Positions 191 through 27,588 of a stretch of DNA of 64,000 nt are shown one piece after another. The notes beneath the pieces were generated by a model that searched no databases, was not told where the DNA came from, and saw only the letters and a list, made by a program, of their open reading frames with translations. The position numbers were made by a program, and so were the translations under genes. Every line of letters begins with the position of its first letter. Position 1 is the stretch's first letter. Origin of the DNA: a virus; the IMG/VR virus record IMGVR_UViG_3300009320_000011, positions 1 through 64,000 of that record; one strand, 5' to 3'.

Positions 191-1072
191 ATGAAATTAA
201 CAGAAGATATATCAAAAAAATATAAAATTAATGAAGCAAAACCCATAGAGGTTAAAGTTGCTAAATTTATAAATACTTTAGGTGATAATGGTAATGATTA
301 TAATGTTGCTGTAAGAAAATCATCTGGAGATATTCGGAAATATTTAATAACAGTCGTTCAAGATAAGAATGCATATCGAGATTTTTTGAGTAGAGATGAT
401 TTAGAAAAATATATATTCGAGGAAAAAGATGATATTGATGAAATGAATGTTACTGGTAATATGGATGGTGGTGAAGGACCACCAAAAGTACCAGGTGCAT
501 TTGCAAAAAGAACTAAAGATACAGAAGACGGAGCTGGAAACGGTAAATTGCTCGGATATACGAATATTAATAAGAAACAACAGCGTAGAAATTTTAAGGA
601 ATCAAAATTAATTAAGTTGAAAGAAGATTATATTCATATTCTAAAGCGTAATGATGGGTATGCTATAATGCATAGTAAATTTGAAGATCCAAAACTTGGT
701 GGACAAATAATAAAAGGAAAAATGTCTAAAAATGATGCAAATAGTTTTGCTGAAAAAATGGCAAAAAGATGGAAATCAAAAATAAAATCAGAATCAACTT
801 ACAAAAAAATAATGGGCGAATTACATGAGGTAAGTTATCCAGAATATAGAGATGATGAAAAAGTATCTCAAAAGAATAAAGTTAACAATTCAATAAAAGA
901 AATAAATCGAAAATTATTTGAAATTGAGAGAATAGCAAAACAAAATGTAAGGTTAAAAACAGAAACTGGTGTAGCTTCTGATAAATATTGGAAGTCAACA
1001 AAAACAAAATTAATAAAGATAGCTGAAAGAATGATTAGAGTGTCAAAAATGATAAGAGAATTGAATGGGTAA
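191..1072 (+). CDS. Hypothetical head-region protein, 293 aa
   Basis: Starts at ATG after a purine-rich RBS (aaaggaaaatt). The protein is highly charged. The N-terminal part ends its first segment with KINE, and a GGEGPPKVPGAF motif (about residues 93-104) is followed by a lysine-rich middle and a C-terminal predicted helical segment rich in K, R and E. It lies directly upstream of the gp21-like protease, where T4 carries the small prohead core proteins gp67 and gp68, but I see no clear relation to them. Its stop overlaps the next start by one base (TAATG), which suggests translational coupling. A head-associated structural or core role is inferred from position only. Confidence 0.75.
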   Translation: MKLTEDISKKYKINEAKPIEVKVAKFINTLGDNGNDYNVAVRKSSGDIRKYLITVVQDKNAYRDFLSRDDLEKYIFEEKDDIDEMNVTGNMDGGEGPPKVPGAFAKRTKDTEDGAGNGKLLGYTNINKKQQRRNFKESKLIKLKEDYIHILKRNDGYAIMHSKFEDPKLGGQIIKGKMSKNDANSFAEKMAKRWKSKIKSESTYKKIMGELHEVSYPEYRDDEKVSQKNKVNNSIKEINRKLFEIERIAKQNVRLKTETGVASDKYWKSTKTKLIKIAERMIRVSKMIRELNG

Positions 1073-1431
1073 TGATAACAATAGATGTGGAAATAGGCAC
1101 GGTAATTCTTACTGGAAAATTTAAGAATAAGAAAACTGTCGTAAAAACTATCGGCACTGATGATCACGGCATGCCCACAATAAACGGGAAAAGAGCATGT
1201 ACATTTCGTATAGCAAAGGAACAACCAATGGAAAACAAAATACCGAAATTGAAAGATATAATTAAAGAAGATGTATCTATAGATGAGTTGACTTCTAATA
1301 AAAAATGGAGAGATGGTAAAGATTTATTAATAAAGGGATTTTTAGAATTAAAGAAAGAACATCATTTATCTGATAAAAACATAAATACTTTAATAGACTT
1401 AACCGTAGAATTAATTAGACGTAAAGTATAG
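1072..1431 (+). CDS. Hypothetical protein with internal second start (leader-type)
   Basis: Residues 1-46 look like a small beta-rich protein ending GTDDHGMPTINGKRACTFR. It then runs in frame into IAKEQP and an internal ATG at 1228 that begins MENKIPKLKDIIKED, a leader nearly identical to that of the next gene. A purine-rich stretch (caaagga) precedes this internal ATG. I think 1228..1431 is translated separately as a leader-cargo protein, and that the upstream gene lost its own stop codon when the 55-bp repeat at 1208..1262 was created. The alternative is a genuine fusion protein. The IIKE tail of the leader fits the (L/I)xE cleavage rule of T4-type prohead proteases. Confidence 0.6.
   Translation: MITIDVEIGTVILTGKFKNKKTVVKTIGTDDHGMPTINGKRACTFRIAKEQPMENKIPKLKDIIKEDVSIDELTSNKKWRDGKDLLIKGFLELKKEHHLSDKNINTLIDLTVELIRRKV
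1208..1262 (+). repeat. 55-bp direct repeat, copy 1
   Basis: Matches 1426..1480 with a single g/a difference. It contains the RBS and the first codons of a leader gene (MENKIPKLKDI). In this copy the frame stays open from the preceding gene. Confidence 0.9.
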
Positions 1432-1480
1432 CAAAGGAACAACCAATGGAAAACAAAATACCAAAATTGAAAGATATAAT
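1426..1480 (+). repeat. 55-bp direct repeat, copy 2
   Basis: Second copy of the repeat at 1208..1262. Here its first bases supply the TAG stop of the preceding gene, and the rest supplies the RBS and leader of the next one. Confidence 0.9.
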
Positions 1481-1937
1481 GTTAAAAGAATCATACTGGA
1501 CTTTACCACCAAATAGTTTTACTGATTTGGAAAGAGCTAGGGATTATTTAAATGTAGTATATAAGGATGTATATAGCAATAATTTATCAGATATAAAATA
1601 TTTGGATATTATTATTAAAAAACTTCAGTCTATTAGGAAAAAAGCAAAGTTGGTTAACGAAAATAAAATATCAGAAGGAATAGATAATATCTCAGAAGAT
1701 TTAACTAGACGTGATGTGGCTAAAATTAGTTCTAAACTACATCCTGCTAGTTTCAAATCTAAGGGTAAAATTGAATCCATTCGTATATATAAAACAAAAA
1801 AAGGAATAAATTTTATACAAGTAAGATATTCTAATTATGGTGACACCAGTAAAATTACAAAAATTGTAACCGATCTTGGATATCAACAAAAATCCAAACA
1901 ACGAATTGGTGGGAGTAACCAATTATATTTTCAATAA
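1446..1937 (+). CDS. Leader-cargo protein, 163 aa
   Basis: Begins MENKIPKLKDIMLKES, a variant of the leader family, with a candidate cleavage after MLKE (residue 15). The cargo has a helical N-terminal part. Its C-terminal region of roughly 60 residues (KIESIRIYKTKKGINFIQVR) looks like a small alpha/beta fold. The start region is a copy of the leader of the preceding gene, so the two genes probably share a leader by local duplication. The function of the cargo is unknown. The location directly upstream of the prohead protease supports packaging into the head. Confidence 0.7.
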   Translation: MENKIPKLKDIMLKESYWTLPPNSFTDLERARDYLNVVYKDVYSNNLSDIKYLDIIIKKLQSIRKKAKLVNENKISEGIDNISEDLTRRDVAKISSKLHPASFKSKGKIESIRIYKTKKGINFIQVRYSNYGDTSKITKIVTDLGYQQKSKQRIGGSNQLYFQ

Positions 1938-1949
1938 ATAAGGAGAAAA

Positions 1950-2579
1950 ATGAAAAACATATTAGTAGATTACACACCATTTGAAGTATCACCACAACAA
2001 ATCAAAGAATCATTCGCGAAAAATGGGAAATTAGTTGTGAGTGGAATATTGCAGACTTGCGATGTTGTAAATCAAAATAAACGTAAATATCCAAAAAACA
2101 TATTAATGCGTGAAGCAAAAAAATATGCTGGTACTTTTATAAAAGAAAGAAGAGCTCTTGGTGAACTAGACCATCCAGATAGTTCTGTAGTAAACTTAAG
2201 CAATACATCTCACAATATCGTTGAAATGCACTGGAATGGAAATAATCTAATTGGAACAATCGAAGTATTATGCGATCGTCCGGGAGCAAAAGGAACACCA
2301 GCCGGTAATATTTTGAAATCATTATTTGATAATAATATAAAACTTGGGATATCATCTCGAGGAATCGGCTCAGTTAAAGAATTATACGAAGAAGATGAAG
2401 ATGGTGTGGTTGAAGTTCAAGATGATTTTGAATTAGTAGCATTTGATTTTGTAAGTAATCCAAGTACTCACGGAGCATTTATGGGAAAATTACACGAATC
2501 AAAAAATCTAAATTCTGAGCAACAAATATATTCTAATATAGAAAATATAATCATGGATATCATAACAACAAAAATATAG
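1950..2579 (+). CDS. 21: Prohead core protease, T4 gp21-like
   Basis: Length 209 aa, close to T4 gp21 (212 aa). It shows the features of this serine protease family (herpesvirus-assemblin-like clan): an N-terminal segment with NQNKRKYP, a catalytic His in GELDHPD (His75), and the serine motif LGISSRG (Ser135/136) followed by the conserved DFVSNPS. In T4 this enzyme sits inside the prohead, cleaves scaffold, capsid and internal proteins after (L/I)-x-E, and then degrades itself. The start ATG follows a strong AAGGAG. It precedes leader genes, scaffold and capsid in the T4 order. It is the natural candidate for processing the leader proteins in this window. Confidence 0.93.
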   Translation: MKNILVDYTPFEVSPQQIKESFAKNGKLVVSGILQTCDVVNQNKRKYPKNILMREAKKYAGTFIKERRALGELDHPDSSVVNLSNTSHNIVEMHWNGNNLIGTIEVLCDRPGAKGTPAGNILKSLFDNNIKLGISSRGIGSVKELYEEDEDGVVEVQDDFELVAFDFVSNPSTHGAFMGKLHESKNLNSEQQIYSNIENIIMDIITTKI

Positions 2580-2590: not shown

Positions 2591-2851
2591 ATGAAATTAT
2601 CAGAATTAAGACAAATAATAAAGGAAGAAATTAAATTTCAATTAGCCGAAAGAAAATCTTATCCAAAGGGAACAAAATCATACTATCAAGTGGATAATGT
2701 TGGGAAAGCAAAATATACTATTAATTTCCACGATGGGTCTAGTACACATAAAGATGGTAGTAAATTCTATGGTATAAAAATTTTAAAAAATAAAAAGGAT
2801 TTAGCGAATTTCATATCAGATTTATCAAAAAAGGGATATAAAGCTGAATAA
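2591..2851 (+). CDS. Leader-cargo protein, 86 aa
   Basis: Starts MKLSELRQIIKEEIKFQLAE, a canonical leader ending in QLAE. The predicted mature cargo (about 66 aa) is a small basic protein rich in Tyr and Lys that ends in KKDLANFISDLSKKGYKAE. It comes 11 bases after the protease stop, so protease and substrate are probably co-expressed. The cargo function is unknown. Confidence 0.8.
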   Translation: MKLSELRQIIKEEIKFQLAERKSYPKGTKSYYQVDNVGKAKYTINFHDGSSTHKDGSKFYGIKILKNKKDLANFISDLSKKGYKAE

Positions 2852-2870: not shown

Positions 2871-3449
2871 ATGACCAAATTATCAAAATTAATAAAAGAG
2901 TCTTGGTTAGAAGACAAAAAAGAAGAAACATCTAGCGACCAAAAAAAGGAATTTCTAGAAGCAGTATCTAAATTTCATGATTATGGAAAATCAATATATC
3001 GTGAACATGATCTAAAGGATGTAACGAAACAGATTGGTGAGTTAATAACTACTGCATCTGAATTAACAATATCCGAAAATGAGCGGGATGATGGCTGGTT
3101 CGATAAAATGACTATAAATCGCCATGTGAAACAACTTAAAGAGAGTTATAAGGTATTCGAAAAAACAGCAAAAGAGATGACTATACTGCAGAATAGATTA
3201 GATTCTTCATATGATACTATCGGCGAAGTGTTATCTAAATATTTTGAAATTAATGAACGGATTGATGATCAACTCAAAGAAGAAGATTCAGCATACCAAG
3301 AATTCTTCAAACAAGCATTAGCTAAATTTAAGGTTAGTTCACCAAATGATTTTAAGTCAGATGAAGCAAAGAAGAAGTTTTTTGACTACGTAGACCAAAA
3401 CTATAAATCGAAGAATGAATCCACAAAACTAAAATCATTAATAAAATAA
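2871..3449 (+). CDS. Leader-type protein, 192 aa, helical
   Basis: Starts MTKLSKLIKESWLED, a shortened leader with a possible cleavage after LIKE. The remainder is predicted to be almost entirely helical, with long charged heptad-like stretches (residues 30-170) that suggest coiled coils. Its TAA overlaps the ATG of the next gene by one base. Its position between protease and scaffold is compatible with a prohead core protein of the T4 gp67/gp68 or IP type. This is inferred, not seen. Confidence 0.7.
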   Translation: MTKLSKLIKESWLEDKKEETSSDQKKEFLEAVSKFHDYGKSIYREHDLKDVTKQIGELITTASELTISENERDDGWFDKMTINRHVKQLKESYKVFEKTAKEMTILQNRLDSSYDTIGEVLSKYFEINERIDDQLKEEDSAYQEFFKQALAKFKVSSPNDFKSDEAKKKFFDYVDQNYKSKNESTKLKSLIK

Positions 3450-3829
3450 TGGATAAACTAACACCACTACTTAAAAAACTAAATATACCAGCGGGCATAC
3501 ATAGTAAAGTTACACAATTATTAGTATTCTTTGCTGCAAATCCACATTATTTGAATATAGTAATGAAACAACTAGGAGAATCAAAAATGGATGCAAATGA
3601 AAAACTAAGAAAATCAATCAGAGAAGAAATAAAAAATCAACTAAAAGAATACTCCTTCAAAGATTATGTTGTATCATACCAGGGAACAAGTATAGTAATT
3701 AAAAATGCATACAAATACTCAGATGATGAAAAAATGTGGAATAGTATATATGAAAAGCTTGCAACAATATCCTTAAACATAGCAAGACAAACAAAAGCAA
3801 AACCAAAAGAAATATCAATTACATTATAA
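3449..3829 (+). CDS. Hypothetical protein with internal leader start at 3587
   Basis: Residues 1-46 form a small hydrophobic helical unit (QLLVFFAANPHYLNIV). They run in frame into an ATG at 3587 preceded by AGGAG, which starts MDANEKLRKSIREEIKNQLK, a leader ending in QLKE. As at 1072, I suspect that 3587..3829 is translated as a separate leader-cargo protein of about 80 residues, either instead of or in addition to the fused form. No function is recognised for either part. Confidence 0.65.
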   Translation: MDKLTPLLKKLNIPAGIHSKVTQLLVFFAANPHYLNIVMKQLGESKMDANEKLRKSIREEIKNQLKEYSFKDYVVSYQGTSIVIKNAYKYSDDEKMWNSIYEKLATISLNIARQTKAKPKEISITL

Positions 3830-4272: not shown

Positions 4273-5256
4273 ATGCCAAAGAAAAAACAATTATTAGACG
4301 AGGTTATTCTCGATGCTAAACTTGTCAGGGAAACAGCTCTTGAACAAGCCAGACTAGCACTTGAAGAAGCTTTTAAACCAAAGATTCAGTCGATGTTGTC
4401 TAAAAAATTACAACAAGAACAAGAAGACGAGGAAATCGAAGACGAAGAACTTCCAGTCGAAGATGAATTTCCAGTTGAAGATGAAATTGAAGATGAAGAA
4501 GAAGTAACTGAAGAAGAAGAAATCGAAGATGAAGAAGAAATTCCAGTTGAAGATGAAGAAGAAGAAACTGAAGATGAAATCGAAGATGAAGAAGAAGTAA
4601 CTGAAGAAGAAACAGAAATTGAAGATGAAATCGAAGATGAAGAAGAAATTCCAGTTGAAGATGAAGAAGACTTAGATTTAGAAGCCGTTATCAAAGAGCT
4701 TGAAGATGAATTAGATGAAGAAGAAGTTCCTCCAGTTGAAGATGAAGAAGAAGAAGTAACTGAAGAAGAAATTCCAATCGAGGATGAAGAAGAAGATGAA
4801 GAAATCGACATCGAAGAAATCATTAAAGCTTTGAAAGAAGAAGATGATGAAGAAGCAGAAGAAATGACTGAAGAAGATGCAGAAGAGGGAGTTGAAGAAT
4901 TAAAAACAGAACTCGAAGAAGCGTATAATGTAATTAATGAATTGAAAAATGAATTAAATGAAATCAATATGTTAAATGCTAAACTGTTGTACTCAAACAG
5001 ACTATTTAAGAAACACAATATGACTCAAAATCAGAAGATGAAAGTTATTGAAACTTTTGATAGAACGAATAGTATTCGTGAAATTAAACTTGTTTACGCA
5101 ACACTAGCAGAAACATTAAACAACACAACTAAAACAAGAAAAAACTTGAAAGAAAGTTTTGCATCTGATACCGTAAAATCAACGAAACCAACAAAAATCA
5201 TCAAAGATGAAGATTCGTTAGCATCAAGGTTCAGAGAATTAGCAAATCTTAAATAA
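4273..5256 (+). CDS. 22: Prohead scaffold protein, T4 gp22-like
   Basis: The protein has 327 residues. Residues 50-215 are an extremely acidic run of E, D, I, V and P with repeated EEIPVEDEEE-type units, followed by a predicted helical C-terminal part (residues 215-270) and a basic tail with DSLASRFRELA. The position between protease and capsid gene equals T4 gene 22, the major scaffolding core protein that is destroyed by gp21. The acidic repeat makes the DNA a gaa/gat-rich simple sequence. An ATG after GGGAG gives the start. Confidence rests on position plus composition, because scaffolds diverge quickly. Confidence 0.82.
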   Translation: MPKKKQLLDEVILDAKLVRETALEQARLALEEAFKPKIQSMLSKKLQQEQEDEEIEDEELPVEDEFPVEDEIEDEEEVTEEEEIEDEEEIPVEDEEEETEDEIEDEEEVTEEETEIEDEIEDEEEIPVEDEEDLDLEAVIKELEDELDEEEVPPVEDEEEEVTEEEIPIEDEEEDEEIDIEEIIKALKEEDDEEAEEMTEEDAEEGVEELKTELEEAYNVINELKNELNEINMLNAKLLYSNRLFKKHNMTQNQKMKVIETFDRTNSIREIKLVYATLAETLNNTTKTRKNLKESFASDTVKSTKPTKIIKDEDSLASRFRELANLK

Positions 5257-5268: not shown

Positions 5269-6918
5269 ATGAGTTTACAGAAAATTATGGAATCAACTAA
5301 AGTTTACGACAAGAAACTTCGTGACGAAACTGAAGTGTTGGTTTCAAAATGGAAAAGAACTGGTCTCATGGATGGTCTCGAGAAAACGAAATACGAAAAA
5401 TACTTCGTAGCTCAATTACTCGAAAATCAAGCCAAGCAATTAGTCGTTGAATCATCTAGGACTGGAACAGCATCAAACTCAGAGGAATGGTCAGGAGTAG
5501 CTCTACCGTTGGTACGTAGAATTTTTAGCGAAATAGCAGCTAAAGATTTTGTTAGCGTTCAACCAATGAGCCTACCATCAGGACTAGTATTCTGGGTAGA
5601 CTTCAAATACGGAACTGGGCAACCAGGATTCACTACAGGATCTGGTAAAGATTCTGAAGCTGACTCTGTATTTGGTATAACAGGAACCATCGGATCTGAC
5701 GCAAGTCAAGGTCTTTATGGAGCCGGCAGATTTGGTTATTCAATCAATGAAGCTGATACAGCAAATCTTGTAACAGGATCAACACCATCATCAACAGAAG
5801 TTGCTACTGCATCTATTGCTGCAGCTGACTATAATTATGATACGTCATTCTCACAGTCATACGCAGGACAATTTGATAGTAGCGCAACTGCTGGTATGTT
5901 TAAGATAACAATGGCGTCGTCTTCAATGACTAATCCAGACTTTGAAGGTATTCGTGCATATAAAATTCGTGGACCTGGTATTTCAACATACTTCCCACAA
6001 TTTACAGTAGCCAATTCAAACAATTCACAGATATCGTTTATTATATCTGGGTCTCAATCATCGTTTAATGGTGGTGGTATTGCTGTAACATACCATAAAC
6101 AACCAACTGATATTACTCGTGGTGACTTTGAAGCTACATCTGATACGGACATCAATATTCCGGAAATCAACGTAGAAATGAAATCTGAACCTATCGTAGC
6201 TAAAACGAGAAAACTAAAAGCTATCTGGACTCCTGAATTCGCACAAGACTTAAATGCATATCACTCAATTGACGCTGAAGCTGAACTAACATCAATGTTA
6301 TCTGAGTACATCTCAATGGAAATTGATCTTGAGATTTTGGATATGTTGATCAAAAATGCAGCAACAACTGAACGTTGGTCAGCACAAATCGGTAGATATT
6401 ATGATAACGCAGCAAGTGCATTCGTTGATTATGCAACGGCTCAAGCACAAGCAGCAGCATTTAACCAAGGAACATGGTTCCAGACTCTGGGAACAAAAAT
6501 CCAGAAGGTATCTAATAAAATCCATCAAAAAACAATGCGTGGCGGAGCGAACTTCTTAGTTTGTTCACCTGAAGTAGCAACTGTTCTGGAATCAATCCCA
6601 GGATATTCAGTTGACACTGACGGCGATAAACCACAATTCGCGATGGGCGTACAGAAAATTGGTCAAATCAATAACAGGTTCCAAGTTTATAAAAATCCAT
6701 ATATGTTAGAAAATACAATTCTTCTAGGATATCGTGGATCACAATTCTTGGAAACAGGAGCTGTTTTTGCACCATATATTCCGTTGATTTTAACTCCATT
6801 AGTATATGATCCTAACAACTTTACTCCAAGACGTGGAGTTATGACACGTTATTCGAAGAAGTTGATTAGACCGGAATTCTACGGAAAGATACATGTAACT
6901 GATCTACCAAACGTGTAA
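5269..6918 (+). CDS. 23: Major capsid protein, T4 gp23-like
   Basis: 549 aa against 521 in T4. The N-terminal delta domain (residues 1-61) ends KQLVVE before SSRTGTASNSEEWSG, which fits removal by the prohead protease at a V/L-x-E site (T4 cleaves after residue 65). Conserved landmarks are LPLVRRIF, QPMSLPSG, the P-domain segment MKSEPIVAKTRKLKAIWTPE, ELTSMLSEYISMEIDLEILD and the C-terminal TPRRGVMTRYSKKLIRP. A strong AGGAGAAATAA precedes the start and a rho-independent terminator follows the stop, as expected for the most highly expressed late gene. Confidence 0.95.
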   Translation: MSLQKIMESTKVYDKKLRDETEVLVSKWKRTGLMDGLEKTKYEKYFVAQLLENQAKQLVVESSRTGTASNSEEWSGVALPLVRRIFSEIAAKDFVSVQPMSLPSGLVFWVDFKYGTGQPGFTTGSGKDSEADSVFGITGTIGSDASQGLYGAGRFGYSINEADTANLVTGSTPSSTEVATASIAAADYNYDTSFSQSYAGQFDSSATAGMFKITMASSSMTNPDFEGIRAYKIRGPGISTYFPQFTVANSNNSQISFIISGSQSSFNGGGIAVTYHKQPTDITRGDFEATSDTDINIPEINVEMKSEPIVAKTRKLKAIWTPEFAQDLNAYHSIDAEAELTSMLSEYISMEIDLEILDMLIKNAATTERWSAQIGRYYDNAASAFVDYATAQAQAAAFNQGTWFQTLGTKIQKVSNKIHQKTMRGGANFLVCSPEVATVLESIPGYSVDTDGDKPQFAMGVQKIGQINNRFQVYKNPYMLENTILLGYRGSQFLETGAVFAPYIPLILTPLVYDPNNFTPRRGVMTRYSKKLIRPEFYGKIHVTDLPNV

Positions 6919-9778: not shown

Positions 9779-9871
9779 AATGTTTCATTAATCTGTGATA
9801 CGCATCTTACGAATCGAGAGAGATTGCAACTTGTGGATCGTCGATATGGAGATAACAATGACTGAAAAAAT
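9779..9871 (+). repeat. 93-bp duplicated segment (copy of neck gene end plus leader start)
   Basis: Identical to 12704..12796. In the other copy it is the last 84 bases of the gp14-like gene together with the RBS and first codons of a leader gene. Here the gp14 fragment is a meaningless remnant, so this is the derived copy. Confidence 0.95.
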
Positions 9872-9917
9872 TAGAGAAATAATTAGAGAAGAAATTAAAT
9901 TCAGTAAAACCAAATAA
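9858..9917 (+). CDS. Orphan leader micro-ORF, 19 aa
   Basis: Reads MTEKIREIIREEIKFSKTK then TAA. It is a leader peptide with almost no cargo, created by the 93-bp duplication. It ends one base before the ATG of the following gene. Either it is debris, or its translation couples ribosomes to the next gene. Confidence 0.45.
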   Translation: MTEKIREIIREEIKFSKTK

Positions 9918-12790: not shown

Positions 12791-12796
12791 AAAAAT
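12704..12796 (+). repeat. 93-bp duplicated segment (source copy)
   Basis: Identical to 9779..9871. This copy lies in intact genes, so it is the likely source. Confidence 0.95.
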
Positions 12797-14433: not shown

Positions 14434-14658
14434 ATGAAAAAATCTGAATTCCGAGAATTAATACGAGAAGAAGCTAAGAAACAATTAAATGAATACGCAC
14501 TAGATGCATCACATAGACGCTTAAATGAATCTATAAAACATTATGTTAAAGAATACCAAAGTGCGTTCGGTGATGAATTTTTACATGAAGGAATAGCACA
14601 GTCATTAAAAAGATTCGTACCAGCAGACCAAGTTAAAAAGATAAAAGAATATTTATAG
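14434..14658 (+). CDS. Leader-cargo protein, 74 aa
   Basis: Starts MKKSEFRELIREEAKKQLNE, one of the clearest leaders, ending in QLNE. The mature cargo would be about 54 aa and helical (SIKHYVKEYQSAFGDEFLHE). It begins two bases after the preceding stop and lies upstream of the sheath gene. Confidence 0.8.
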   Translation: MKKSEFRELIREEAKKQLNEYALDASHRRLNESIKHYVKEYQSAFGDEFLHEGIAQSLKRFVPADQVKKIKEYL

Positions 14659-16629: not shown

Positions 16630-16908
16630 ATGAAATTGAAGGATATTCTCAGAGAATCAAAAGAACGAATAATAGCTAATGACATATCAGATTACTGGAG
16701 AACACATATTGGCAAATGGTCTCCAATATTATTCAAATCAAAACTAGAAAAATATATAGATGACGTACTACAATATCACAGCGTAACATCAGATGATTTA
16801 CCAAAAAAAGTAGCTGACTACTGGTTTAATAAACTGCATGGTACAACAAATGAAAATTCCATAAAACAAAAGATTAGAAGCTTTATTGAAAAGGAGCTAA
16901 AAAAATGA
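16630..16908 (+). CDS. Leader-type protein, 92 aa
   Basis: Starts MKLKDILRESKERI, a short leader with candidate cleavage after ILRE. The cargo is helical and basic and contains YWRTHIGKWSPILFKSKLEK. The first gene of the 16.6-26 kb leader island, it has two promoter-like elements directly upstream. Its last bases overlap the next gene by 4 bases (ATGA). Confidence 0.75.
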   Translation: MKLKDILRESKERIIANDISDYWRTHIGKWSPILFKSKLEKYIDDVLQYHSVTSDDLPKKVADYWFNKLHGTTNENSIKQKIRSFIEKELKK

Positions 16909-17123
16909 AAAGATCAGAACTAAGAAAATTAGTACGAGAAGAAGTTAAGAAAGCGCTTTTAAAAGAAAATGCTAAAGAAAAACTGATAGATAAATTACTA
17001 AACACAAAATATGCGGACGATGATCCAAAATACGATCAATCAAATTATAAATATCTAAATAGTTTGCCTATTCAGAAGTTGAAAAAGATGATCGACGACT
17101 GGGATGATTATGAAGAAAGATAA
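16905..17123 (+). CDS. Leader-cargo protein, 72 aa
   Basis: Starts MKRSELRKLVREEVKKALLK then EN: the leader ends LLKE. The cargo has about 50 residues, is charged, and contains YADDDPKYDQSNYKYLNSLP. Translation is coupled to the previous gene through ATGA. Confidence 0.78.
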   Translation: MKRSELRKLVREEVKKALLKENAKEKLIDKLLNTKYADDDPKYDQSNYKYLNSLPIQKLKKMIDDWDDYEER

Positions 17124-17126: not shown

Positions 17127-17186
17127 ATGAAAACATCTGAATTCCGAAAATTAGTACGAGAAGAAATTAGAAAAGAATTAAAATAA
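17127..17186 (+). CDS. Orphan leader micro-ORF, 19 aa
   Basis: MKTSEFRKLVREEIRKELK then TAA: a perfect leader that stops before the (L/I)xE site and has no cargo. It begins three bases after the preceding stop. It may be a remnant after cargo deletion or an expressed small peptide. Confidence 0.5.
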   Translation: MKTSEFRKLVREEIRKELK

Positions 17187-17287: not shown

Positions 17288-17614
17288 ATGAAACGAAGAA
17301 AGATAATATATGAATCAGAACTAAAACAACTAATTCGGGAAGAAATTAGAAAGCAATTAAGTGAAGTAAATTTAGACAATAATCAAAAGCTTGAATTAAT
17401 TAAAAAAGAAAAGGGATATATCGAATTTCGGGGCCAAAAAATGGAAATCATCTCAGTGAGAAATAAATTAATATTTTTTGATAATGGTTCGACTTTACAA
17501 GACATATATCCAGAAGCTTTAACTCTTTCAGATAAAAAGTATAAAGGCAAAAATGTTTGGAAACTGAGTTTGGACAAAGCATTCCAGAAACATTATCTAT
17601 ATAATATAAGGTAA
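17288..17614 (+). CDS. Leader-cargo protein, 108 aa
   Basis: Starts MKRRKIIYESELKQLIREEI, a leader extended by six residues at the front, with the end KQLSE. The cargo (about 80 aa) is beta-rich with KGYIEFRGQKMEIISVRNKL and LIFFDNGSTLQDIYPE, looking like a small SH3- or OB-like barrel. It is basic at the C-terminus. The function is unknown. Confidence 0.75.
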   Translation: MKRRKIIYESELKQLIREEIRKQLSEVNLDNNQKLELIKKEKGYIEFRGQKMEIISVRNKLIFFDNGSTLQDIYPEALTLSDKKYKGKNVWKLSLDKAFQKHYLYNIR

Positions 17615-17666: not shown

Positions 17667-17748
17667 ATGAAACGATCAGAACTAAAACAATTTAGTTAAA
17701 AAATTAAAAGGCTGGAAATATAAACTAGTATCAGGAAAAATCATATGA
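17667..17748 (+). pseudogene. Second leader gene with internal deletion
   Basis: ATG at 17667 gives MKRSELKQ then FS and a stop. Another frame encodes LVKKLKGWKYKLVSGKII up to TGA at 17746-17748, overlapping the next ATG. This is the same type of scar as at 17203: leader start joined out of frame to a cargo end. Confidence 0.6.
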
Positions 17749-18005
17749 AAAAATCAGAACTAAGACAAATCATAAAAGAAGAGATTATAAAAGAGTTGAA
17801 TGAATTTAATTGGCCACAATCGAAATTGAGTCCAATATTTGTCAATCATTTAAAAACTGAACTTGATTCTAAATTTCGTGGATATGATATATATGGGAAA
17901 GGATATGACATATATGTAGATGGCATAAAAATAATGACTGTGAATCCAGATAAAGACTCAGTTAATACTATAGTTCAAAAAATAAAACAAACACTGGGAA
18001 AATAA
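17745..18005 (+). CDS. Leader-cargo protein, 86 aa
   Basis: Starts MKKSELRQIIKEEIIKELNE, a canonical leader ending ELNE. The cargo shows an internal repeat (GYDIYGKGYDIYVDG) within a small alpha/beta fold and ends IVQKIKQTLGK. It overlaps the remnant before it and is followed two bases after its stop by another leader gene. Confidence 0.8.
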   Translation: MKKSELRQIIKEEIIKELNEFNWPQSKLSPIFVNHLKTELDSKFRGYDIYGKGYDIYVDGIKIMTVNPDKDSVNTIVQKIKQTLGK

Positions 18006-18007: not shown

Positions 18008-18256
18008 ATGAAAAAATCAGAATTAAGACAAATCATAAGAGAAGAAATCAAAAGTATTCTAAAAGAGAGCTATAAAATTGATACCGACTCAGCATCTGAT
18101 GCTGATAAAATAAAAGATATACTAAGGAAAAAGAAAATTAAATTCAAACAAACTGGATCTATAATTACAATTATGTTAAATAGAAAATCAGCACAATCAT
18201 CTATGATAAATTCACAATTTGATAAGATTGTTGGCAACCATTGGAAAGAGATATAA
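18008..18256 (+). CDS. Leader-cargo protein, 82 aa
   Basis: Starts MKKSELRQIIREEIKSILKE, a canonical leader ending ILKE. The cargo resembles a small alpha/beta domain: DADKIKDILRKKKIKFKQTG, then SIITIMLN. Three leader genes in a row (17745, 18008, 18260) have nearly identical first 40 bases, consistent with tandem duplication followed by replacement of the cargo. Confidence 0.8.
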   Translation: MKKSELRQIIREEIKSILKESYKIDTDSASDADKIKDILRKKKIKFKQTGSIITIMLNRKSAQSSMINSQFDKIVGNHWKEI

Positions 18257-18259: not shown

Positions 18260-19141
18260 ATGAAAAAATCAGAAATAAGAAAAATAATTAAAGAGGAAAT
18301 CAAAATTGCTATACGTGAATCTAATATTCCCAGCAATATCGAAAAATGGATTAAGCAACGTGGACCAGAAACTACTAGAGATGTTAGAACGATAGGCAAT
18401 TGGGTGAAAAAAATTACAGGTCACGGAATTTCTGGTGGGACTGCAATTGGGAAAGGATATGATACTCTCGTACTAGACATTAAATACCAAGATGCTGCTA
18501 TTTATTATGATACTTATGAAGGAACAATAAAATTATATGGAAAAAAGGTCGTTGGATTTCAAGAATTCAAAAGAGTATTTCAATATTACAACACTAAATT
18601 AACTGAATCCAAAATCAAAAAAGGTGATATCGTAAAACCAAAAATTGGTCCACACAAAGGACTAAAACATAAAGTTATCCATGATTTTGGTAATGGTAAA
18701 TATAATATACAGCCAATCGGATTGAAACCAAAACAAATAAGATATAGATTGGGAGCTGCTGGAGCAAAAGAACAAGATTTGGAATTAGTGGAATCAAAAG
18801 AACCAATTTTAGAGAAAGAAGATATAACCCCACAAGACGGACAATATCTAAGTTTCAGTGATGCAGATAGAAATATTAGACCAATTTGGGTAAAGGGTAA
18901 AAAGATTAAGGTTGGAAACAAAGGAAAAGCACCATATGCTGTTATAGGAAAAAAGAAAGATAAACTTCAATTTATAGGCAATTATTTTTATGTTGATATT
19001 GATAACATAAAACAAAGAGGAACAATATCTGGTAAACCGGCTTGGATACTAAAAAATTATAAGAAAGCAATCAATGGAAAAGACTTAGAAGCAAAATTAC
19101 TCAATCGAAGCGGTGATTTTGTATATTATATAAATCTATAG
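18260..19141 (+). CDS. Large leader-cargo protein with KOW-like domain, 293 aa
   Basis: Leader MKKSEIRKIIKEEIKIAIRE is followed directly by SNIPSNIEKWIKQRGPETTR, a segment also found near the end of the tape measure protein at 30510. The middle contains KKGDIVKPKIGPHKGLKHKV, which resembles a KOW/SH3-like domain (residues about 118-150), followed by a C-terminal beta-rich part. It is the longest cargo in the island. A candidate cleavage lies after AIRE (residue 20). A role after injection, for instance binding nucleic acid or ribosomes, is speculation from the KOW-like motif. Confidence 0.75.
   Translation: MKKSEIRKIIKEEIKIAIRESNIPSNIEKWIKQRGPETTRDVRTIGNWVKKITGHGISGGTAIGKGYDTLVLDIKYQDAAIYYDTYEGTIKLYGKKVVGFQEFKRVFQYYNTKLTESKIKKGDIVKPKIGPHKGLKHKVIHDFGNGKYNIQPIGLKPKQIRYRLGAAGAKEQDLELVESKEPILEKEDITPQDGQYLSFSDADRNIRPIWVKGKKIKVGNKGKAPYAVIGKKKDKLQFIGNYFYVDIDNIKQRGTISGKPAWILKNYKKAINGKDLEAKLLNRSGDFVYYINL
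18323..18379 (+). repeat. 57-bp segment shared with tape measure gene
   Basis: Matches 30510..30566 with one mismatch and in the same reading frame (NIPSNIEKWIxQRGPETTR). Confidence 0.93.
18744..18770 (+). repeat. 27-bp segment shared with baseplate hub gene
   Basis: Identical to 34894..34920 but read in another frame there (GAAGAK here, WELLEQK there). Confidence 0.85.
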
Positions 19142-19143: not shown

Positions 19144-19323
19144 ATGAAACTAAAACATCTCATAGAATCTGATCCGCAAACATATAAACGATTATCATAT
19201 GTCCGAGCGAGCATTGGTAATATAAGGCGAACACTTCGTCAAATAGACTGGACGAAAGCAACTGATAATGAAAAACGAGAAATCAAAAGAACGATACAAC
19301 AGTTAGTTCAAATTATAAAGTAG
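19144..19323 (+). CDS. Small leader-type protein, 59 aa
   Basis: Starts MKLKHLIESDPQTYKRLSYV. The short leader MKLKHLIE matches the MKLKxLI(x)E type seen at 16630, 25475 and 25993. The cargo is basic (RASIGNIRRTLRQIDWTKAT). It begins two bases after the preceding stop. Confidence 0.6.
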   Translation: MKLKHLIESDPQTYKRLSYVRASIGNIRRTLRQIDWTKATDNEKREIKRTIQQLVQIIK

Positions 19324-19330: not shown

Positions 19331-19554
19331 ATGAAAAATCAGAATTAAGACAAATCATAAGAGAAGAAATTCAAAAAGCATTAAATGAAATTTCTAGATT
19401 ATCATTTCGAGAATGGTTTGCTGAAAACAAAAATTCAGATGAGCTAACACATATGTATAATGATTATAAACACGAACAAAAACAAATGGGACTTAAAGCA
19501 GATCCATTCATTAAATGGGCTAAAGAATACTTCAAGTCTGTAATAGATAAATGA
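19331..19554 (+). pseudogene. Leader-cargo gene broken by a one-base frameshift at the start
   Basis: From ATG at 19331 the frame stops after five codons. One base over, an intact leader and cargo run to TGA at 19554: KSELRQIIREEIQKALNE then ISRLSFREWFAENKNSDELT. The start has five A after ATG-like bases where relatives have six (ATGAAAAATC instead of ATGAAAAAATC). Either a real inactivating deletion, a sequencing error in a homopolymer, or slippage-dependent expression. Confidence 0.7.
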
Positions 19555-20153
19555 AAAATCTACTAAAAATACTACTAATAGTACTTCTTACATCATGTGC
19601 AACATTAACATATGATTATGATGATGTATATTATACTACAGAGCAAACCGTTAATTTTATACCTGGAATATATCAATACTATACTCCACCACTAATATTC
19701 TATTGGGACTATACGTATTCCGGATGGCAGTATAATTTATATTGTAATTGCTATCAGTATTATAGTTGGTATTCATGTCGTTGGTATAATTATTATTGGA
19801 TATACAATCAATATCCAAGATGGTATGCATACAATCACTATTATGGAAGACGCTATTCACCAATGCCGAATCATAAAAGACAGGTTCAAAAAATTACAAC
19901 ACCAAACCAAAGACCAGTAACATCAAATAAAAGACAAATCATACCAAAACAAAGACCATCAAATAATCGAACTAGACAAATCACACCAAAACGAAGACCA
20001 CCAACTTACCAAAATTTTACACCAAGAACTCAATCAAATAAAAATAAATCACATATATATAATAGAAGCACACCACAAAGAAGAAGTGAACCACAAAGAA
20101 TTAATCCAATACGAACTGCACCAAAATCAAAAATAGGAGCTAGAAGAAAATGA
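19551..20153 (+). CDS. Predicted lipoprotein, Tyr/Trp-rich with basic tail, 200 aa
   Basis: The N-terminus MKNLLKILLIVLLTSCATL is a lipoprotein signal peptide with lipobox LTSC (Cys16). Residues 25-105 are extraordinarily rich in Tyr and Trp and include four Cys. Residues 108-200 form a very basic low-complexity tail with repeated QRP and KRQ units. A phage gene with such a signal suggests an envelope protein made during infection, for example a superinfection-exclusion factor or lysis modulator. I recognise no family. Its ATG overlaps the stop of the broken leader gene, and its end overlaps the next ATG. Confidence 0.75.
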   Translation: MKNLLKILLIVLLTSCATLTYDYDDVYYTTEQTVNFIPGIYQYYTPPLIFYWDYTYSGWQYNLYCNCYQYYSWYSCRWYNYYWIYNQYPRWYAYNHYYGRRYSPMPNHKRQVQKITTPNQRPVTSNKRQIIPKQRPSNNRTRQITPKRRPPTYQNFTPRTQSNKNKSHIYNRSTPQRRSEPQRINPIRTAPKSKIGARRK

Positions 20154-20371
20154 CCGAAATCAAACAAAAAATTAGAGACATGATTGCGGAGGAAATCAAA
20201 AATTTCAAATCAATCAAAGAAGCAACCACTGAAAAAGTGGATGGAATTCTTGTCGTAACAAATTCAAACGGATCAGTTGAACTGCATTTACCACAAGGTA
20301 TGAAAGGCGTAGAGCTTAAGAAATGGTTAGCAAAACATCCAGACATAGATAAGAAGTGGTCTAAGAAATAG
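20150..20371 (+). CDS. Leader-type protein, 73 aa
   Basis: Starts MTEIKQKIRDMIAEEIKNFK and continues SIKEATTEK: a leader variant with two candidate sites (MIAE and SIKE). The cargo is small and beta-rich (GILVVTNSNGSVELHLPQG) with a helical end. Its 3' end overlaps by 11 bases the 3' end of the convergent homing endonuclease. Confidence 0.7.
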   Translation: MTEIKQKIRDMIAEEIKNFKSIKEATTEKVDGILVVTNSNGSVELHLPQGMKGVELKKWLAKHPDIDKKWSKK

Positions 20372-23427: not shown

Positions 23428-23688
23428 ATGAAAAAATCAGAATTTCGAAAATTGATCAGAGAAGAAGTCAAATCAATACTTAAAGAGGGAGCTGACTGGA
23501 TTGTATTAGATTCTATACATTCTTTAATTGATAGTTATACTCTAGCAATATATCCAATGGTTAATGGTAAAATCAATATACACGTTGAAGTTGAGCCAGG
23601 AACTAAAGATTATAATATGTTGATCAAGAAATTAGATTCCAAAGATCGTAAAATATACACATCAGTTAAAAAAGAGGCAGGAAAATAA
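23428..23688 (+). CDS. Leader-cargo protein, 86 aa
   Basis: Starts MKKSEFRKLIREEVKSILKE, a canonical leader ending ILKE, followed by GADWIVLDSIHSLIDSYTL. The cargo is a small alpha/beta protein (NGKINIHVEVEPGTKDYNML). It is the first gene of the second half of the leader island. Confidence 0.8.
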   Translation: MKKSEFRKLIREEVKSILKEGADWIVLDSIHSLIDSYTLAIYPMVNGKINIHVEVEPGTKDYNMLIKKLDSKDRKIYTSVKKEAGK

Positions 23689-23689: not shown

Positions 23690-23953
23690 ATGAAAATATC
23701 AGAACTAAGACAAATGATAAGAGAAGAATTAAAATTATTTGAAGCATCACAAGCAACATGGGAAGTCATATTTGATGATTTGAATTTAAGTGGATTTGAT
23801 TTTCCACGTGGAGTAGAATTGCGTAGAAAAAATAAATATAAAGTTAAAGCTAGAGGAACTGATGAAGCAATTAGAAAAGCAGCCAAAGAAGCTGGTGTAA
23901 AAGGCAATGGTTGGATGGCAGTTGATGTATATTCTGTGAAAAAAATGGGTTAA
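23690..23953 (+). CDS. Leader-cargo protein, 87 aa
   Basis: Starts MKISELRQMIREELKLFEAS; the likely cleavage is after LFE (residue 17). The cargo has a basic segment (VELRRKNKYKVKARGTDEAI) and a helix AIRKAAKEAGVKGNG, resembling a small RNA/DNA-binding alpha/beta fold. It starts one base after the preceding stop. Confidence 0.78.
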   Translation: MKISELRQMIREELKLFEASQATWEVIFDDLNLSGFDFPRGVELRRKNKYKVKARGTDEAIRKAAKEAGVKGNGWMAVDVYSVKKMG

Positions 23954-23958: not shown

Positions 23959-24477
23959 GTGAAAAAATATACCATATATCGTGGATGGCATTATGCATTT
24001 TTTCTAATCGGAAGATTATTCGGATGGCACTATAATAAGAAAAAATTCAAAATTACATTTAAGGTAGACCAAGATGGGTATTGGGAACCACCTCGTAATT
24101 ATGATGATTATGATCTAAATAAGGTATCAGGACTAACTTTTGGATTATTTGGCATTCATGAAAATAGCGTACGGCTAACATCTGTTCCAGATTTTGATAC
24201 TAAAAATATTTTGGATATATATGGATATACATATGATTCATCTATAAAAGAGCATACTGCTAAAATATTATGTAGTATAACATGTGGTATAGAACAAGTA
24301 GCAATAGTAGAATTACATGAGAAGCATTATTATTTTTTATTGAATGGTCGTGTATTAAAAATGAATAATAAAACACCAGACCCAAAACTCCAAAAAGAGA
24401 ATTATCCATTTCATGGTGGAAATAATACAGCACCAAATACATATAGAGTTTGGACAAAAGTAGAGGTAATAAAATGA
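23959..24477 (+). CDS. Hypothetical protein, 172 aa
   Basis: GTG start (MKKYTIYRGWHYAFFLIGRL) close behind the preceding stop. It has no leader. The N-terminal 30 residues contain a hydrophobic, aromatic segment (HYAFFLIGRLFGWHY). The C-terminal segment has HGGNNTAPNTYRVWTKVEVI, recalling small bacterial proteins of unknown function with a GGNxTAP motif. It lies inside the leader island and ends in ATGA overlap with the next leader gene. Confidence 0.65.
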   Translation: MKKYTIYRGWHYAFFLIGRLFGWHYNKKKFKITFKVDQDGYWEPPRNYDDYDLNKVSGLTFGLFGIHENSVRLTSVPDFDTKNILDIYGYTYDSSIKEHTAKILCSITCGIEQVAIVELHEKHYYFLLNGRVLKMNNKTPDPKLQKENYPFHGGNNTAPNTYRVWTKVEVIK

Positions 24478-24986
24478 AAATATCAGAACTAAGACAAATA
24501 ATACGAGAAGAAATCAATCTTCAGTTAAATGAGAAAAATATAAAAACCCAAAAGTGGAATAAAGTACAGAGTTGGGAGACCACACCAAAAGGTGTTCCAC
24601 CAAAATATGAAGCCGACCAGATATTATTTAAAATTGAAGATGATAAAGGAAAAATAAAAGAATCATTAATAAGAGAAGCTAGTCTTGATGGCGAAATCCA
24701 GAAAATGCTTAGAACATTAGCAAAAATTAAAGCCGATCCAAATAGGGAAGAATATGTAATAGATGTTGGTGAGTGGACAAGACACCCAGCAAATTTAATG
24801 GTTACTCTGAATTACAGAGATAAAAAAATGAATAATAAAATGAAATTTCAACCATTACTTGCGTTTCCAAAAAAATTAGATATATATAAGGTTGTTAGAA
24901 AAACACTAACAAAATTAGAGAAGGCGGGTTATTCTATTAATATAGGTGGCGGTGAAAAAAATCTTATAAAATATACATTAAAATAA
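24474..24986 (+). CDS. Leader-cargo protein, 170 aa
   Basis: The ATG at 24474 (overlapping the preceding TGA) gives MKISELRQIIREEINLQLNE, a canonical leader ending QLNE. The cargo of about 150 residues is a charged alpha/beta protein with WNKVQSWETTPKGVPPKYEA and a C-terminal AGYSINIGGGEKNLIKYTLK. An in-frame start 24 bases upstream is less likely because it would put extra residues before the leader. Confidence 0.8.
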   Translation: MKISELRQIIREEINLQLNEKNIKTQKWNKVQSWETTPKGVPPKYEADQILFKIEDDKGKIKESLIREASLDGEIQKMLRTLAKIKADPNREEYVIDVGEWTRHPANLMVTLNYRDKKMNNKMKFQPLLAFPKKLDIYKVVRKTLTKLEKAGYSINIGGGEKNLIKYTLK

Positions 24987-25156: not shown

Positions 25157-25456
25157 ATGGAATTAAGTAAAATAGCTAGAGAATTAATTAAAGAGGATGC
25201 ATCTACTCTAATAGATTTGAAAAAAATAGCAAAATTAATACAAGCAAAAACCAATGGTAAACTAAAATATATATCAAATTTACGTAATTCTGTTAAAGTA
25301 TCAATAATGGGAAACGATGATATATTAGAAAAAGTATCTAGGAAAGGTGTGTATAGAATAAAAAAATTGGGATTTGTAGATACGCCAAAATATTTGATAG
25401 ATTTGGTAAAAGATTATAGTCCTCCAAAAGGCGGAACTCAATCTTCACAATTTTGA
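25157..25456 (+). CDS. Leader-type protein, 99 aa
   Basis: Starts MELSKIARELIKEDASTLID, a leader variant with candidate cleavage after LIKE. The cargo (KIAKLIQAKTNGKLKYISNL, VKVSIMGNDDILEKVSRKGV) is a small basic alpha/beta protein. Three bases separate it from the membrane protein gene. Confidence 0.7.
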   Translation: MELSKIARELIKEDASTLIDLKKIAKLIQAKTNGKLKYISNLRNSVKVSIMGNDDILEKVSRKGVYRIKKLGFVDTPKYLIDLVKDYSPPKGGTQSSQF

Positions 25457-25474: not shown

Positions 25475-25996
25475 ATGAAACTAAAAAATCTAATTATAGA
25501 AGCATTACCATCCAGCATAACAGATAAGTATTCTCTGCATGATTGGAGACATTATTTAAGACAACTGGGACTAAAGCCATGGCATATTAAAATAACACAA
25601 AATGGGTTTGAAGCTAGTTTAAGTTCTGCTAGTAAAAATAAACCAAACTTAAGTGATTTTACACAAGTAAAAGGTAGTTGGGTTAGACTATCTTTTAAGG
25701 ATGTACATAATAAAAAAATAACAAAATCATTATATGCTCTATTTCAACCCATAAAAGAAGAAACCGGTCTAACTAAAATATTTGATAAAACTGTATCTGA
25801 ATATAAGGAACTTCTTGTAAAACAAGAGAAGATAAAAAAGGAATATTTATCAAAATCACCAGAAGAAAAAGCAAAAGCTAAAGATGCTTACATAAGATCA
25901 ATTAAAAAAATCAATAATGATATTAAAAAAGCTGAAGTTAAATTAAATAGCGCGATAATAAATTTAAGAGTTCCGGCGGAGGATGAATTATTATGA
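25475..25996 (+). CDS. Leader-type protein, 173 aa
   Basis: Starts MKLKNLIIEALPSSITDKYS, a short leader with LIIE before A. The N-terminal domain contains LHDWRHYLRQLGLKPWHIKI and a beta-rich stretch. The C-terminal 80 residues are a lysine-rich helical coil (KELLVKQEKIKKEYLSKSPE). The end overlaps the next ATG by 4 bases. Confidence 0.7.
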   Translation: MKLKNLIIEALPSSITDKYSLHDWRHYLRQLGLKPWHIKITQNGFEASLSSASKNKPNLSDFTQVKGSWVRLSFKDVHNKKITKSLYALFQPIKEETGLTKIFDKTVSEYKELLVKQEKIKKEYLSKSPEEKAKAKDAYIRSIKKINNDIKKAEVKLNSAIINLRVPAEDELL

Positions 25997-26295
25997 AATT
26001 AAAAAATTTACTTAAAGAAGAAAAACTGGCTGAAGCAACTCAAAAGGCATTTGGAGGCATAAAATTCAATGTTAGATTTTATCCAAAAGATAATATTATT
26101 AATTTTACACAAGTAAATTCAAGAGATAACCCAGATGAAAGTAAAATAAAATCTGAAATATCAACGTATCTAAATAAAAAATTAAATTTGAAAATTAATG
26201 CCCCCAGATATCCAATAAAATCACCAATATCAGGAATCAATTTCAAATTATATGACAATGACATCGAAGAACTAATACTTCGACAATTAAAATAA
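25993..26295 (+). CDS. Leader-type protein, 100 aa
   Basis: Starts MKLKNLLKEEKLAEATQKAF. The leader type is the same as in the preceding gene, with (L/I)xE sites LLKE and KLAE. The cargo is a basic alpha/beta protein with KFNVRFYPKDNIINFTQVNS. This is the last leader gene before the tail assembly genes. Confidence 0.72.
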   Translation: MKLKNLLKEEKLAEATQKAFGGIKFNVRFYPKDNIINFTQVNSRDNPDESKIKSEISTYLNKKLNLKINAPRYPIKSPISGINFKLYDNDIEELILRQLK

Positions 26296-27141: not shown

Positions 27142-27358
27142 ATATAGGCCCGTTCTACATTCCGAGATATTCGACTTGGTTTTCCATTCAAAGGGCGGAT
27201 TCGACTGGGCATCAGTATATTTTGACATGCCCATCTATTTACGACACTTTTATATCAAAAAATTAGATGAGTACAATAAAAAACGGAACAAGGAAATTGA
27301 AGATGCAAATAAAGGTTCTAGCGGAAAATCAATTAGCAAACCTGGCATTCATCAATAA
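27116..27358 (+). CDS. Small tail assembly protein, start by TTG or by frameshift from gp26-like gene
   Basis: 80 aa with the conserved-looking core YRPVLHSEIFDLVFHSKGGF, then DWASVYFDMPIYLRHFYIKK. No ATG precedes this core. Translation must begin at TTG 27116 (no clear RBS), or reach the frame by a +1 or -2 slip on the T7 run in the gp26-like gene, giving an extended chaperone-like product. The C-terminal tail is charged. It lies 42 bases before the next gene. Confidence 0.75.
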   Translation: MNFFGLGSEYRPVLHSEIFDLVFHSKGGFDWASVYFDMPIYLRHFYIKKLDEYNKKRNKEIEDANKGSSGKSISKPGIHQ

Positions 27359-27372
27359 AAAAGTTAAAATTT

Positions 27373-27393
27373 TATATTTATATAAAATGGGAG
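27373..27393 (+). promoter_or_regulatory. Late-type promoter element plus RBS
   Basis: TATATTTATATAAAATGGG followed by AGC, same type as 16604, upstream of the gene at 27400 and the tape measure. Confidence 0.45.
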
Positions 27394-27399
27394 CATAAT

Positions 27400-27588
27400 A
27401 TGAAAAAAAGGAGACTTACCGAAGGAATACTAACATCAGTATTTAAGGTGTTATTTAAGGGAAAAGTAGATGTTATAGAAAAAGCATTAAGAGACGACCC
27501 AATATTAAAACAACAAGTAAAAAAAATACACAAAAATTTAGATGAATTAACAAAATATGTTGAAGATAATTTTGGTGAAAATTATTAA
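27400..27588 (+). CDS. Small helical protein, 62 aa (possible leader)
   Basis: MKKRRLTEGILTSVFKVLFK continues into a charged helical protein ending VEDNFGENY. RLTE would fit the (L/I)xE rule with cleavage after residue 8, so it may belong to the packaged set in short form. Its stop overlaps the tape measure start by one base. Confidence 0.65.
   Translation: MKKRRLTEGILTSVFKVLFKGKVDVIEKALRDDPILKQQVKKIHKNLDELTKYVEDNFGENY

What the first reader, a model, noticed from the sequence alone, without database searches (positions are those of the whole stretch)
191..27588. Large family of proteins with a T4-like capsid-targeting leader next to a gp21-type protease
Seen: many short genes start with MKKSELRQIIREEIK-like helices ending in (L/I)-x-E. 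The ends are QLAE 2591, QLKE 3587, AINE 12783, QLNE 14434, LLKE 16905, QLSE 17288, ELNE 17745, ILKE 18008, AIRE 18260, ALNE 19331, ILKE 23428, LFE 23690 and QLNE 24474. Shorter MKLKxLIxE or similar types occur at 1228, 1446, 2871, 11513, 16630, 19144, 20150, 25157, 25475, 25993 and perhaps 27400. All lie in the virion half and none in 36-64 kb. Cargoes are unrelated to each other. Established: in T4 the internal proteins IPI-IPIII and Alt carry a short N-terminal targeting sequence (MKTYQEFIAE in IPIII) that gp21 removes after (L/I)xE; IPI counters a host restriction enzyme. Inference: this phage packages and injects an unusually large, modular set of proteins, possibly anti-defence factors, using this leader as an address tag.
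Basis: partly seen in the sequence, partly recalled or inferred. Interest (0 to 1): 0.92.

Follow-up and report, generated by a model that had tools for sequence, protein, structure and literature searches.

The report
Phage capsid address tags on proteins
This uncultured T4-related phage, like many of its relatives, puts the same short removable "address label" on over a dozen unrelated small proteins; the evidence suggests that the label directs them into the virus head and is then cut off by the phage's own head protease, so that they could be delivered into the host at infection.

Summary
The window is part of a 75-kb T4-like ("Far-T4"-type) virus record. About a dozen genes begin with MKKSELRQIIREEI-x(2-5)-(L/I)xE, with 0 such matches in 100 shuffles, near a PF03420 (gp21-type) protease and a gp23 capsid gene. 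303 leader ORFs carry 201 non-redundant cargoes. Conservation stops exactly at the Glu; the next residue is enriched in Ala/Asn/Gly/Ser. The same (L/I/V)xE|small motif lies at predicted cleavage sites of the capsid protein and the protease itself. Cargo domains occur elsewhere without the leader, starting right after the Glu position, or inside longer proteins behind an internal LxE. Every leader-bearing record spanning the head module has the protease (22 of 22); apparent exceptions examined are truncated contigs. Best reading: a capsid-targeting propeptide, as in T4 IPI-III and Alt, with its own consensus, a far larger cargo repertoire and polyprotein-like cargoes. Cleavage is strongly inferred, packaging likely, injection and anti-defence untested. 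Corrections: the 19331 leader is out of frame; some relatives match this count (16); relatives also carry leaders beside replication genes.

The parts
191..1072 (+). conserved head-module protein next to the protease; internal junction LHE|VSYPEY after residue 213 (nt 829/830), whose C-terminal domain exists elsewhere as a leader-bearing protein; likely core protein or polyprotein
   Evidence: AlphaFold model: low-confidence 207-212 directly before a confident helical domain
1228..1269 (+). possible short leader MENKIPKLKDIIKE|D (internal Met of ORF 1072-1431)
   Evidence: near copy of the 1446 leader
1446..1490 (+). short leader MENKIPKLKDIMLKE|S of ORF 1446-1937
1950..2579 (+). gp21-type prohead protease (Peptidase_S77); own putative self-processing sites QIKE|S (res. 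20) and KLHE|S (res. 183)
   Evidence: PF03420 4.3e-27; phrog_207 6.2e-49; sites conserved in relatives
2591..2650 (+). long leader MKLSELRQIIKEEIKFQLAE|R, ORF 2591-2851
2871..2900 (+). short leader MTKLSKLIKE|S of a conserved head-module gene (ORF 2871-3449)
3587..3649 (+). long leader MDANEKLRKSIREEIKNQLKE|Y (internal Met of ORF 3449-3829)
4273..5256 (+). acidic coiled-coil-like protein just upstream of the capsid gene; candidate scaffold/core protein (the presumed docking partner); several LxE|small sites
   Evidence: position and composition; sites; no family hit, role inferred
5269..6918 (+). major capsid protein gp23; predicted propeptide cleavage LVVE|SS after residue 61, the Glu invariant in the relatives aligned
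   Evidence: PF07068 7e-77; alignment
9858..9917 (+). leader-only stub MTEKIREIIREEIKFSKTK*
11513..11539 (+). possible short leader MIKLKQILE|Y
12783..12839 (+). long leader MTEKIRQIIREEIKKAINE|G
14434..14493 (+). long leader MKKSEFRELIREEAKKQLNE|Y, ORF 14434-14658
16630..16656 (+). short leader MKLKDILRE|S, ORF 16630-16908
16905..16967 (+). long leader MKRSELRKLVREEVKKALLKE|N, ORF 16905-17123
17127..17186 (+). leader-only stub MKTSEFRKLVREEIRKELK*
17288..17365 (+). long leader with N-terminal extension, ...ESELKQLIREEIRKQLSE|V, ORF 17288-17614
17745..17804 (+). long leader MKKSELRQIIKEEIIKELNE|F, ORF 17745-18005
18008..18067 (+). long leader MKKSELRQIIREEIKSILKE|S, ORF 18008-18256
18260..18319 (+). 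long leader MKKSEIRKIIKEEIKIAIRE|S
18320..19141 (+). multi-domain basic cargo with internal LTE|S (res. 116) and LVE|S (res. 178) flanking a domain shared with another phage's short-leader protein; predicted polyprotein
19144..19167 (+). possible short leader MKLKHLIE|S
19331..19390 (+). broken leader: the leader frame is out of register with the ATG (MKNQN*)
20150..20221 (+). possible leader MTEIKQKIRDMIAEEIKNFKSIKE|A
23428..23487 (+). long leader MKKSEFRKLIREEVKSILKE|G, ORF 23428-23688
23690..23743 (+). long leader MKISELRQMIREELKLFE|A, ORF 23690-23953
24474..24533 (+). long leader MKISELRQIIREEINLQLNE|K; basic 150-aa cargo
25157..25195 (+). possible leader MELSKIARELIKE|D
25475..25501 (+). 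short leader MKLKNLIIE|A; basic 164-aa cargo
25993..26019 (+). short leader MKLKNLLKE|E

Best explanation
The leader is a capsid-targeting propeptide. It is a short helix that docks precursor proteins onto the prohead core (inferred). The phage's gp21-type serine protease then cuts it off after the Glu of (L/I)xE during head maturation (strongly supported by sequence). This frees small, often basic cargo proteins inside the DNA-filled head, from which they are probably ejected into the host with the genome (inferred from T4). The tag and its cleavage site act as an interchangeable joint: unrelated cargoes are swapped behind it, and some cargoes are chains of domains separated by internal LxE sites. 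The likely role is early host take-over or counter-defence, and this last step is speculative.
For: A scrambled pattern gave 0. There were 0 leader ORFs in 1.0 Mb of random viral contigs, and only 2 true leaders, both in one MAG, among prokaryotic genomes. Cleavage: information content drops from 3.7 bits at the Glu to 0.4 and then about 0.1, and P1' is enriched in A/N/G/S. Own-protease specificity: the same (V/I/L)xE|(S/A/T/G) site is conserved in capsid and protease N-termini. Joint behaviour: LNE|GTRSRIG versus leaderless M|GTRSRIGV; ILKE|DFDNSIY versus internal VVKE|DYDNSIY; ELNE|VTYRQYK versus internal LHE|VSYPEY. Co-occurrence: protease in 22 of 22 leader records that span the head module, with no HK97 capsid or S78 protease in the protease-negative records. 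Selection acts on the protein: synonymous codons vary freely. Window cargoes are small and nearly all (14 of 16) net basic, like T4 internal proteins. In T4 the tag targets proteins into the head and gp21 cuts after L/I-x-E (PMC9026906).
Against: No proteomics for any carrier was found, so neither presence in the virion nor cleavage has been seen. About 13% of non-redundant leaders (26 of 197) have no LxE within 12 residues. The leader consensus differs from T4's (MKTYQEFIAE), so homology to it is not shown. Across relatives the cargoes are only marginally more basic than neighbours (p=0.04). Cargo function is unknown. Many gp21-type phages lack this leader, including all 6 random protease-positive records.
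Confidence: 0.77

Rival explanations
1. Leader proteins are prohead core/scaffold components (like T4 gp67/gp68): the helix docks them on the core, they are cut up during maturation and mostly leave the head, and nothing useful is injected.
For: Conserved head-module genes (191-1072, 2871-3449) carry leaders or internal LxE sites; in T4, core proteins are cut at several L/I-x-E sites and removed.
Against: About 200 non-redundant cargoes, with different sets in each phage, do not fit structural parts; some cargoes have leaderless homologs in other phages.
Confidence: 0.15
2. The leader is an uncut docking helix that ties proteins to a scaffold, membrane or host protein, and the LxE is only the helix end.
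For: The sequence is strongly helical in character and nothing was assayed.
Against: Sharp conservation edge, small P1' residues, a motif shared with capsid and protease sites, and cargo homologs starting at P1'; strict link to gp21-type protease phages.
Confidence: 0.06
3. The leaders are recently copied DNA (a mobile 5' module or a translation-enhancing start) without a protein-level role.
For: 80% DNA identity among window leaders; leader-only stubs and a broken copy exist.
Against: Synonymous codons vary widely across phages while residues are kept; no conserved upstream sequence beyond A-richness; position-specific residues run through the LxE.
Confidence: 0.02

Closest known systems
T4 capsid targeting sequence of IPI, IPII, IPIII and Alt, processed by gp21 (PMC9026906)
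   Same: Short N-terminal propeptide ending in (L/I)xE on small, mostly basic, mutually unrelated proteins; same protease family (S77); same kind of gp23/gp20/gp21 head module.
   Different: Different, longer consensus (MKKSELRQIIREEI..LxE, plus a short M(I)KLxxLLxE form); up to 16 tagged loci per record instead of four T4 proteins; about 200 distinct cargoes; polyprotein-like cargoes; cleavage and packaging not yet shown.
SPN3US-type giant phage head ejection proteins with propeptides cut by gp245 (PMC10052503)
   Same: Many internal head proteins, with protease-removed N-terminal propeptides.
   Different: Different phage group and protease; most head proteins there are not cleaved; no shared short leader on many small cargoes reported in what I read.
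Far-T4 phages (PMC4360716) and Flavobacterium phage immuto / Microcystis phage Mel-JY01
   Same: The phage group to which this record belongs by capsid protein; immuto carries related leaders (MKKSQLRQIIKEAL.., MKKSELVKLIKEEL.., FLKE|S).
   Different: The Far-T4 paper mentions neither a prohead protease nor internal proteins (text search).

Membership tests
T4-type capsid targeting sequence (CTS) | Short N-terminal sequence ending in (L/I)xE shared by unrelated proteins | tested here: met
T4-type capsid targeting sequence (CTS) | A gp21-type (S77) prohead protease encoded by the same phage | tested here: met
   exceptions examined are truncated
T4-type capsid targeting sequence (CTS) | Cleavage after the Glu by that protease | tested here: inconclusive
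   Indirect only: conservation edge, P1' bias, shared motif with capsid/protease sites
T4-type capsid targeting sequence (CTS) | The tag directs proteins into the head | not testable with these tools
   needs a fusion-packaging assay or virion proteomics
T4-type capsid targeting sequence (CTS) | Sequence homology with T4 CTS (MKTYQEFIAE) | tested here: inconclusive
   Only the terminal (L/I)xE and helix-like pattern agree; too short to establish homology; compared by eye, not by profile
T4 internal proteins (IPI-III) | Mature part homologous to an IP | tested here: not met
   PHROG/Pfam scans of window cargoes and of 109 relatives gave no IP family
Peptidase_S77 prohead protease | Match above curated cut-off | tested here: met
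   95.3 bits vs cut-off 27
Far-T4 / T4-like myovirus | gp23-type capsid, gp21-type protease (and gp20 portal) | tested here: met
   gp23 and gp21 found; capsid closest to Mel-JY01, immuto and RM378. The portal was seen in relatives but not looked for in this record

The most novel reading that the evidence does not exclude
Far-T4 phages use one address-and-cut joint as a general packaging platform: any protein fused behind it, alone or in polyprotein chains, is loaded into the head, released by the head protease and injected. The hundreds of unknown cargoes would then be a large untapped pool of injected early effectors, including anti-defence proteins.
Probability: 0.42. Interest if true: 0.92.

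Novelty: new variant of a known kind. Interest (0 to 1): 0.8.

Why it matters
If right, the leader lets anyone list by sequence the proteins that a very large group of uncultured phages carries into the cell in its virions. These act before any phage gene is expressed, where T4's IPI (anti-restriction) and Alt act. It turns "hypothetical protein" genes into a testable effector catalogue, and gives a new, longer packaging tag alongside T4's. The LxE-joined multi-domain cargoes would be a phage example of polyprotein processing of packaged cargo.

Tried and rejected
Close relatives of the window protease by peptide patterns in viral contigs: none. Near-identical DNA among phage records: none. 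tblastn of the bare 20-residue leader in named phages: one marginal hit, query too short for that database. HK97 capsid / S78 protease as an alternative partner in protease-negative leader records: none. AlphaFold of the 293-aa cargo alone: pLDDT 32, unusable. Solved-structure match for it: none. Pfam/PHROG naming of cargoes: mostly unknown families; single weak hits such as a kinase/zeta-toxin-like ATPase were not pursued as functions. One search ran on wrongly labelled loci after a failed fetch and is not used for G007, G008, G014 or G027; it was redone. The cluster statistic (13 of 28 junctions exact, background 2.1%) includes some dubious short-motif queries, so it is supportive only. No library paper contains the leader strings searched for.
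Full report
WHAT IS THERE. The window is bases 1-64000 of a 75,151-bp virus record. ORF 1950-2579 is a prohead protease (Peptidase_S77/PF03420 4.3e-27; phrog_207 6.2e-49). ORF 5269-6918 is a gp23 capsid protein (PF07068 7e-77). By capsid protein the nearest named phages are Microcystis phage Mel-JY01 (61%), Flavobacterium phage immuto (52%) and Rhodothermus phage RM378 (43%). RM378 is the cultured reference of the Far-T4 group (PMC4360716).

THE OBSERVATION. The core pattern with up to 3 mismatches gives 11 matches in the window, none in 100 shuffles. A leader profile gives 16 matches in the whole record. The short type (MKLKxLLxE) is seen 4 times in the first 30 kb, with 0.1 expected under residue shuffling, and none further on. 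Mature cargoes share no detectable similarity. Corrections: 19331 is out of frame (MKNQN*); 3587 and 1228 are internal Met codons of longer ORFs; 27400 is weak; two leader-only stubs exist at 9858 and 17127.

HOW WIDESPREAD. A scrambled pattern of the same composition hit none. In 1.0 Mb of contigs fetched by a random 14-mer there were no leader ORFs, against 283 in 1.17 Mb of leader loci. The leader loci were chosen for the pattern, so the fair figures are the scrambled-pattern and random-contig zeros. In 257 Gb of prokaryotic genomes there were 6 pattern hits, of which only 2, both in one MAG, are N-terminal leaders. 303 leader ORFs reduce to 201 non-redundant cargoes. Relatives carry 1-16 profile matches per record, and 16 records from the random set, six of them protease-positive, carry none. 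So this phage is at the top of its group, not an outlier.

EVIDENCE FOR CLEAVAGE. (a) Aligned on the Glu, information is 2.6 bits at P3 (L, I), 3.7 at P1, 0.4 at P1' and about 0.1 beyond. P1' is enriched for Ala, Asn, Gly and Ser and depleted for Lys and Phe. The P1 and P3 values are imposed by the alignment rule; the P1' bias and the downstream collapse are not. (b) The capsid proteins of relatives share an invariant Glu at the expected gp23 propeptide site, (V/I/L)xE|(S/A/T). (c) The protease itself has the same motif just before its catalytic domain and near its C-terminus in most relatives, for example QQIKE|S, LLTE|S, KLHE|S. T4 gp21 cuts after L/I-x-E (PMC9026906). (d) Cargo homologs break at the predicted bond: LNE|GTRSRIG versus a leaderless homolog M|GTRSRIGV; ILKE|DFDNSIY versus internal VVKE|DYDNSIY; ELNE|VTYRQYK versus internal LHE|VSYPEY in window gene 191-1072 and its homologs. 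In an AlphaFold model of 191-1072 the internal site (residue 213) follows a low-confidence stretch (207-212) and precedes a confident helical domain. ORF 18260-19141 has LTE|S and LVE|S around a domain that another phage carries in a different short-leader protein. I read these as polyprotein-like cargoes.

CO-OCCURRENCE. Of 50 leader-bearing records of at least 20 kb, 22 have the gp21-type protease, against 6 of 37 random records. 20 have gp23, all among the 22. 24 have the gp20 portal, and the two of these without protease end inside or 2.4 kb after the portal. Eight protease-negative records examined in full are syntenic T4-like contigs cut off before the head module; the rest were tested only for gp20, gp23, HK97 capsid and S78 protease. 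No HK97 capsid or S78 protease was found in the negatives tested. So every leader record seen to span the head module has the protease. The converse fails: many gp21-type phages lack this leader.

ALTERNATIVES. A pure DNA or translation-start effect is unlikely: synonymous codons vary freely while residues are kept, and upstream DNA is not conserved beyond A-richness. An uncut docking helix does not explain points (a)-(d). The serious rival is that many of these are prohead core proteins that are digested and lost; some conserved head-module genes probably are. The diversity of about 200 cargoes, changing from phage to phage, argues for accessory packaged proteins, as T4 reviews propose for the CTS (PMC9026906).

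WHAT IS SHOWN AND WHAT IS INFERRED. Shown: the leader, its phage-specificity, its modularity, the conservation edge, the shared motif, and the protease association. Inferred: actual cleavage, packaging, ejection. Speculative: anti-defence roles; almost no cargo has a known domain. Window cargoes are small and nearly all (14 of 16) basic, as T4 internal proteins are.

COMPARISON. It works like the T4 CTS/gp21 system and sits in the same kind of head module. It differs in leader consensus and length, in scale, in having two leader classes, and in the multi-domain cargoes. Homology to the T4 tag itself cannot be claimed from so short a sequence, and no cargo is an IP homolog. Hence: new variant of a known kind.

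Noticed in passing
L135, L138, L140, L141 (protease genes of leader-bearing records G013, G034, G028, G012): The protease has 2-3 in-frame TGA codons at positions where relatives have Trp (e.g. IIC*DFVSNP vs CWDFVSNP), suggesting TGA=Trp recoding in some Far-T4 relatives.
   Followed up: partly
18323-18379 and 30510-30566: A 57-bp stretch 98% identical in DNA and in the same frame lies directly after the leader of ORF 18260 and near the 3' end of the tape-measure-like gene 27588-30833 (NIPSNIEKWI[K/E]QRGPETTR), a recent transfer.
   Followed up: partly
7008-8846, 20361-21854 (-), 22526-23403: Two related ORFs that look like homing endonucleases (7008, 20361), and a zinc-finger/endonuclease-like pair at 22526 and 23092 that matches a single ORF in a relative, so probably a split gene.
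   Followed up: no
43868-49255 and 58267-59812: Ribonucleotide reductase and clamp-loader genes appear interrupted by intein-like insertions with endonuclease-like ORFs (by eye).
   Followed up: no
L309-L316 (G007), L006: A related MKITK-type helix occurs at both the N- and C-terminus of some proteins (e.g. ...LNKIIQEEFRNVLLEMGSK at the end), perhaps a C-terminal processing tag.
   Followed up: no
L009 ORF at 4269; L115 ORF at 535; L271 ORF at 8571: Leader proteins that join domains found elsewhere as separate leader proteins, with LxE-type sequences at or near the joints.
   Followed up: partly
9807-9870 and 12730-12800: A repeat covers the end of one gene and a leader start; one copy is the leader-only stub at 9858, the other the intact leader gene at 12783.
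   Followed up: no
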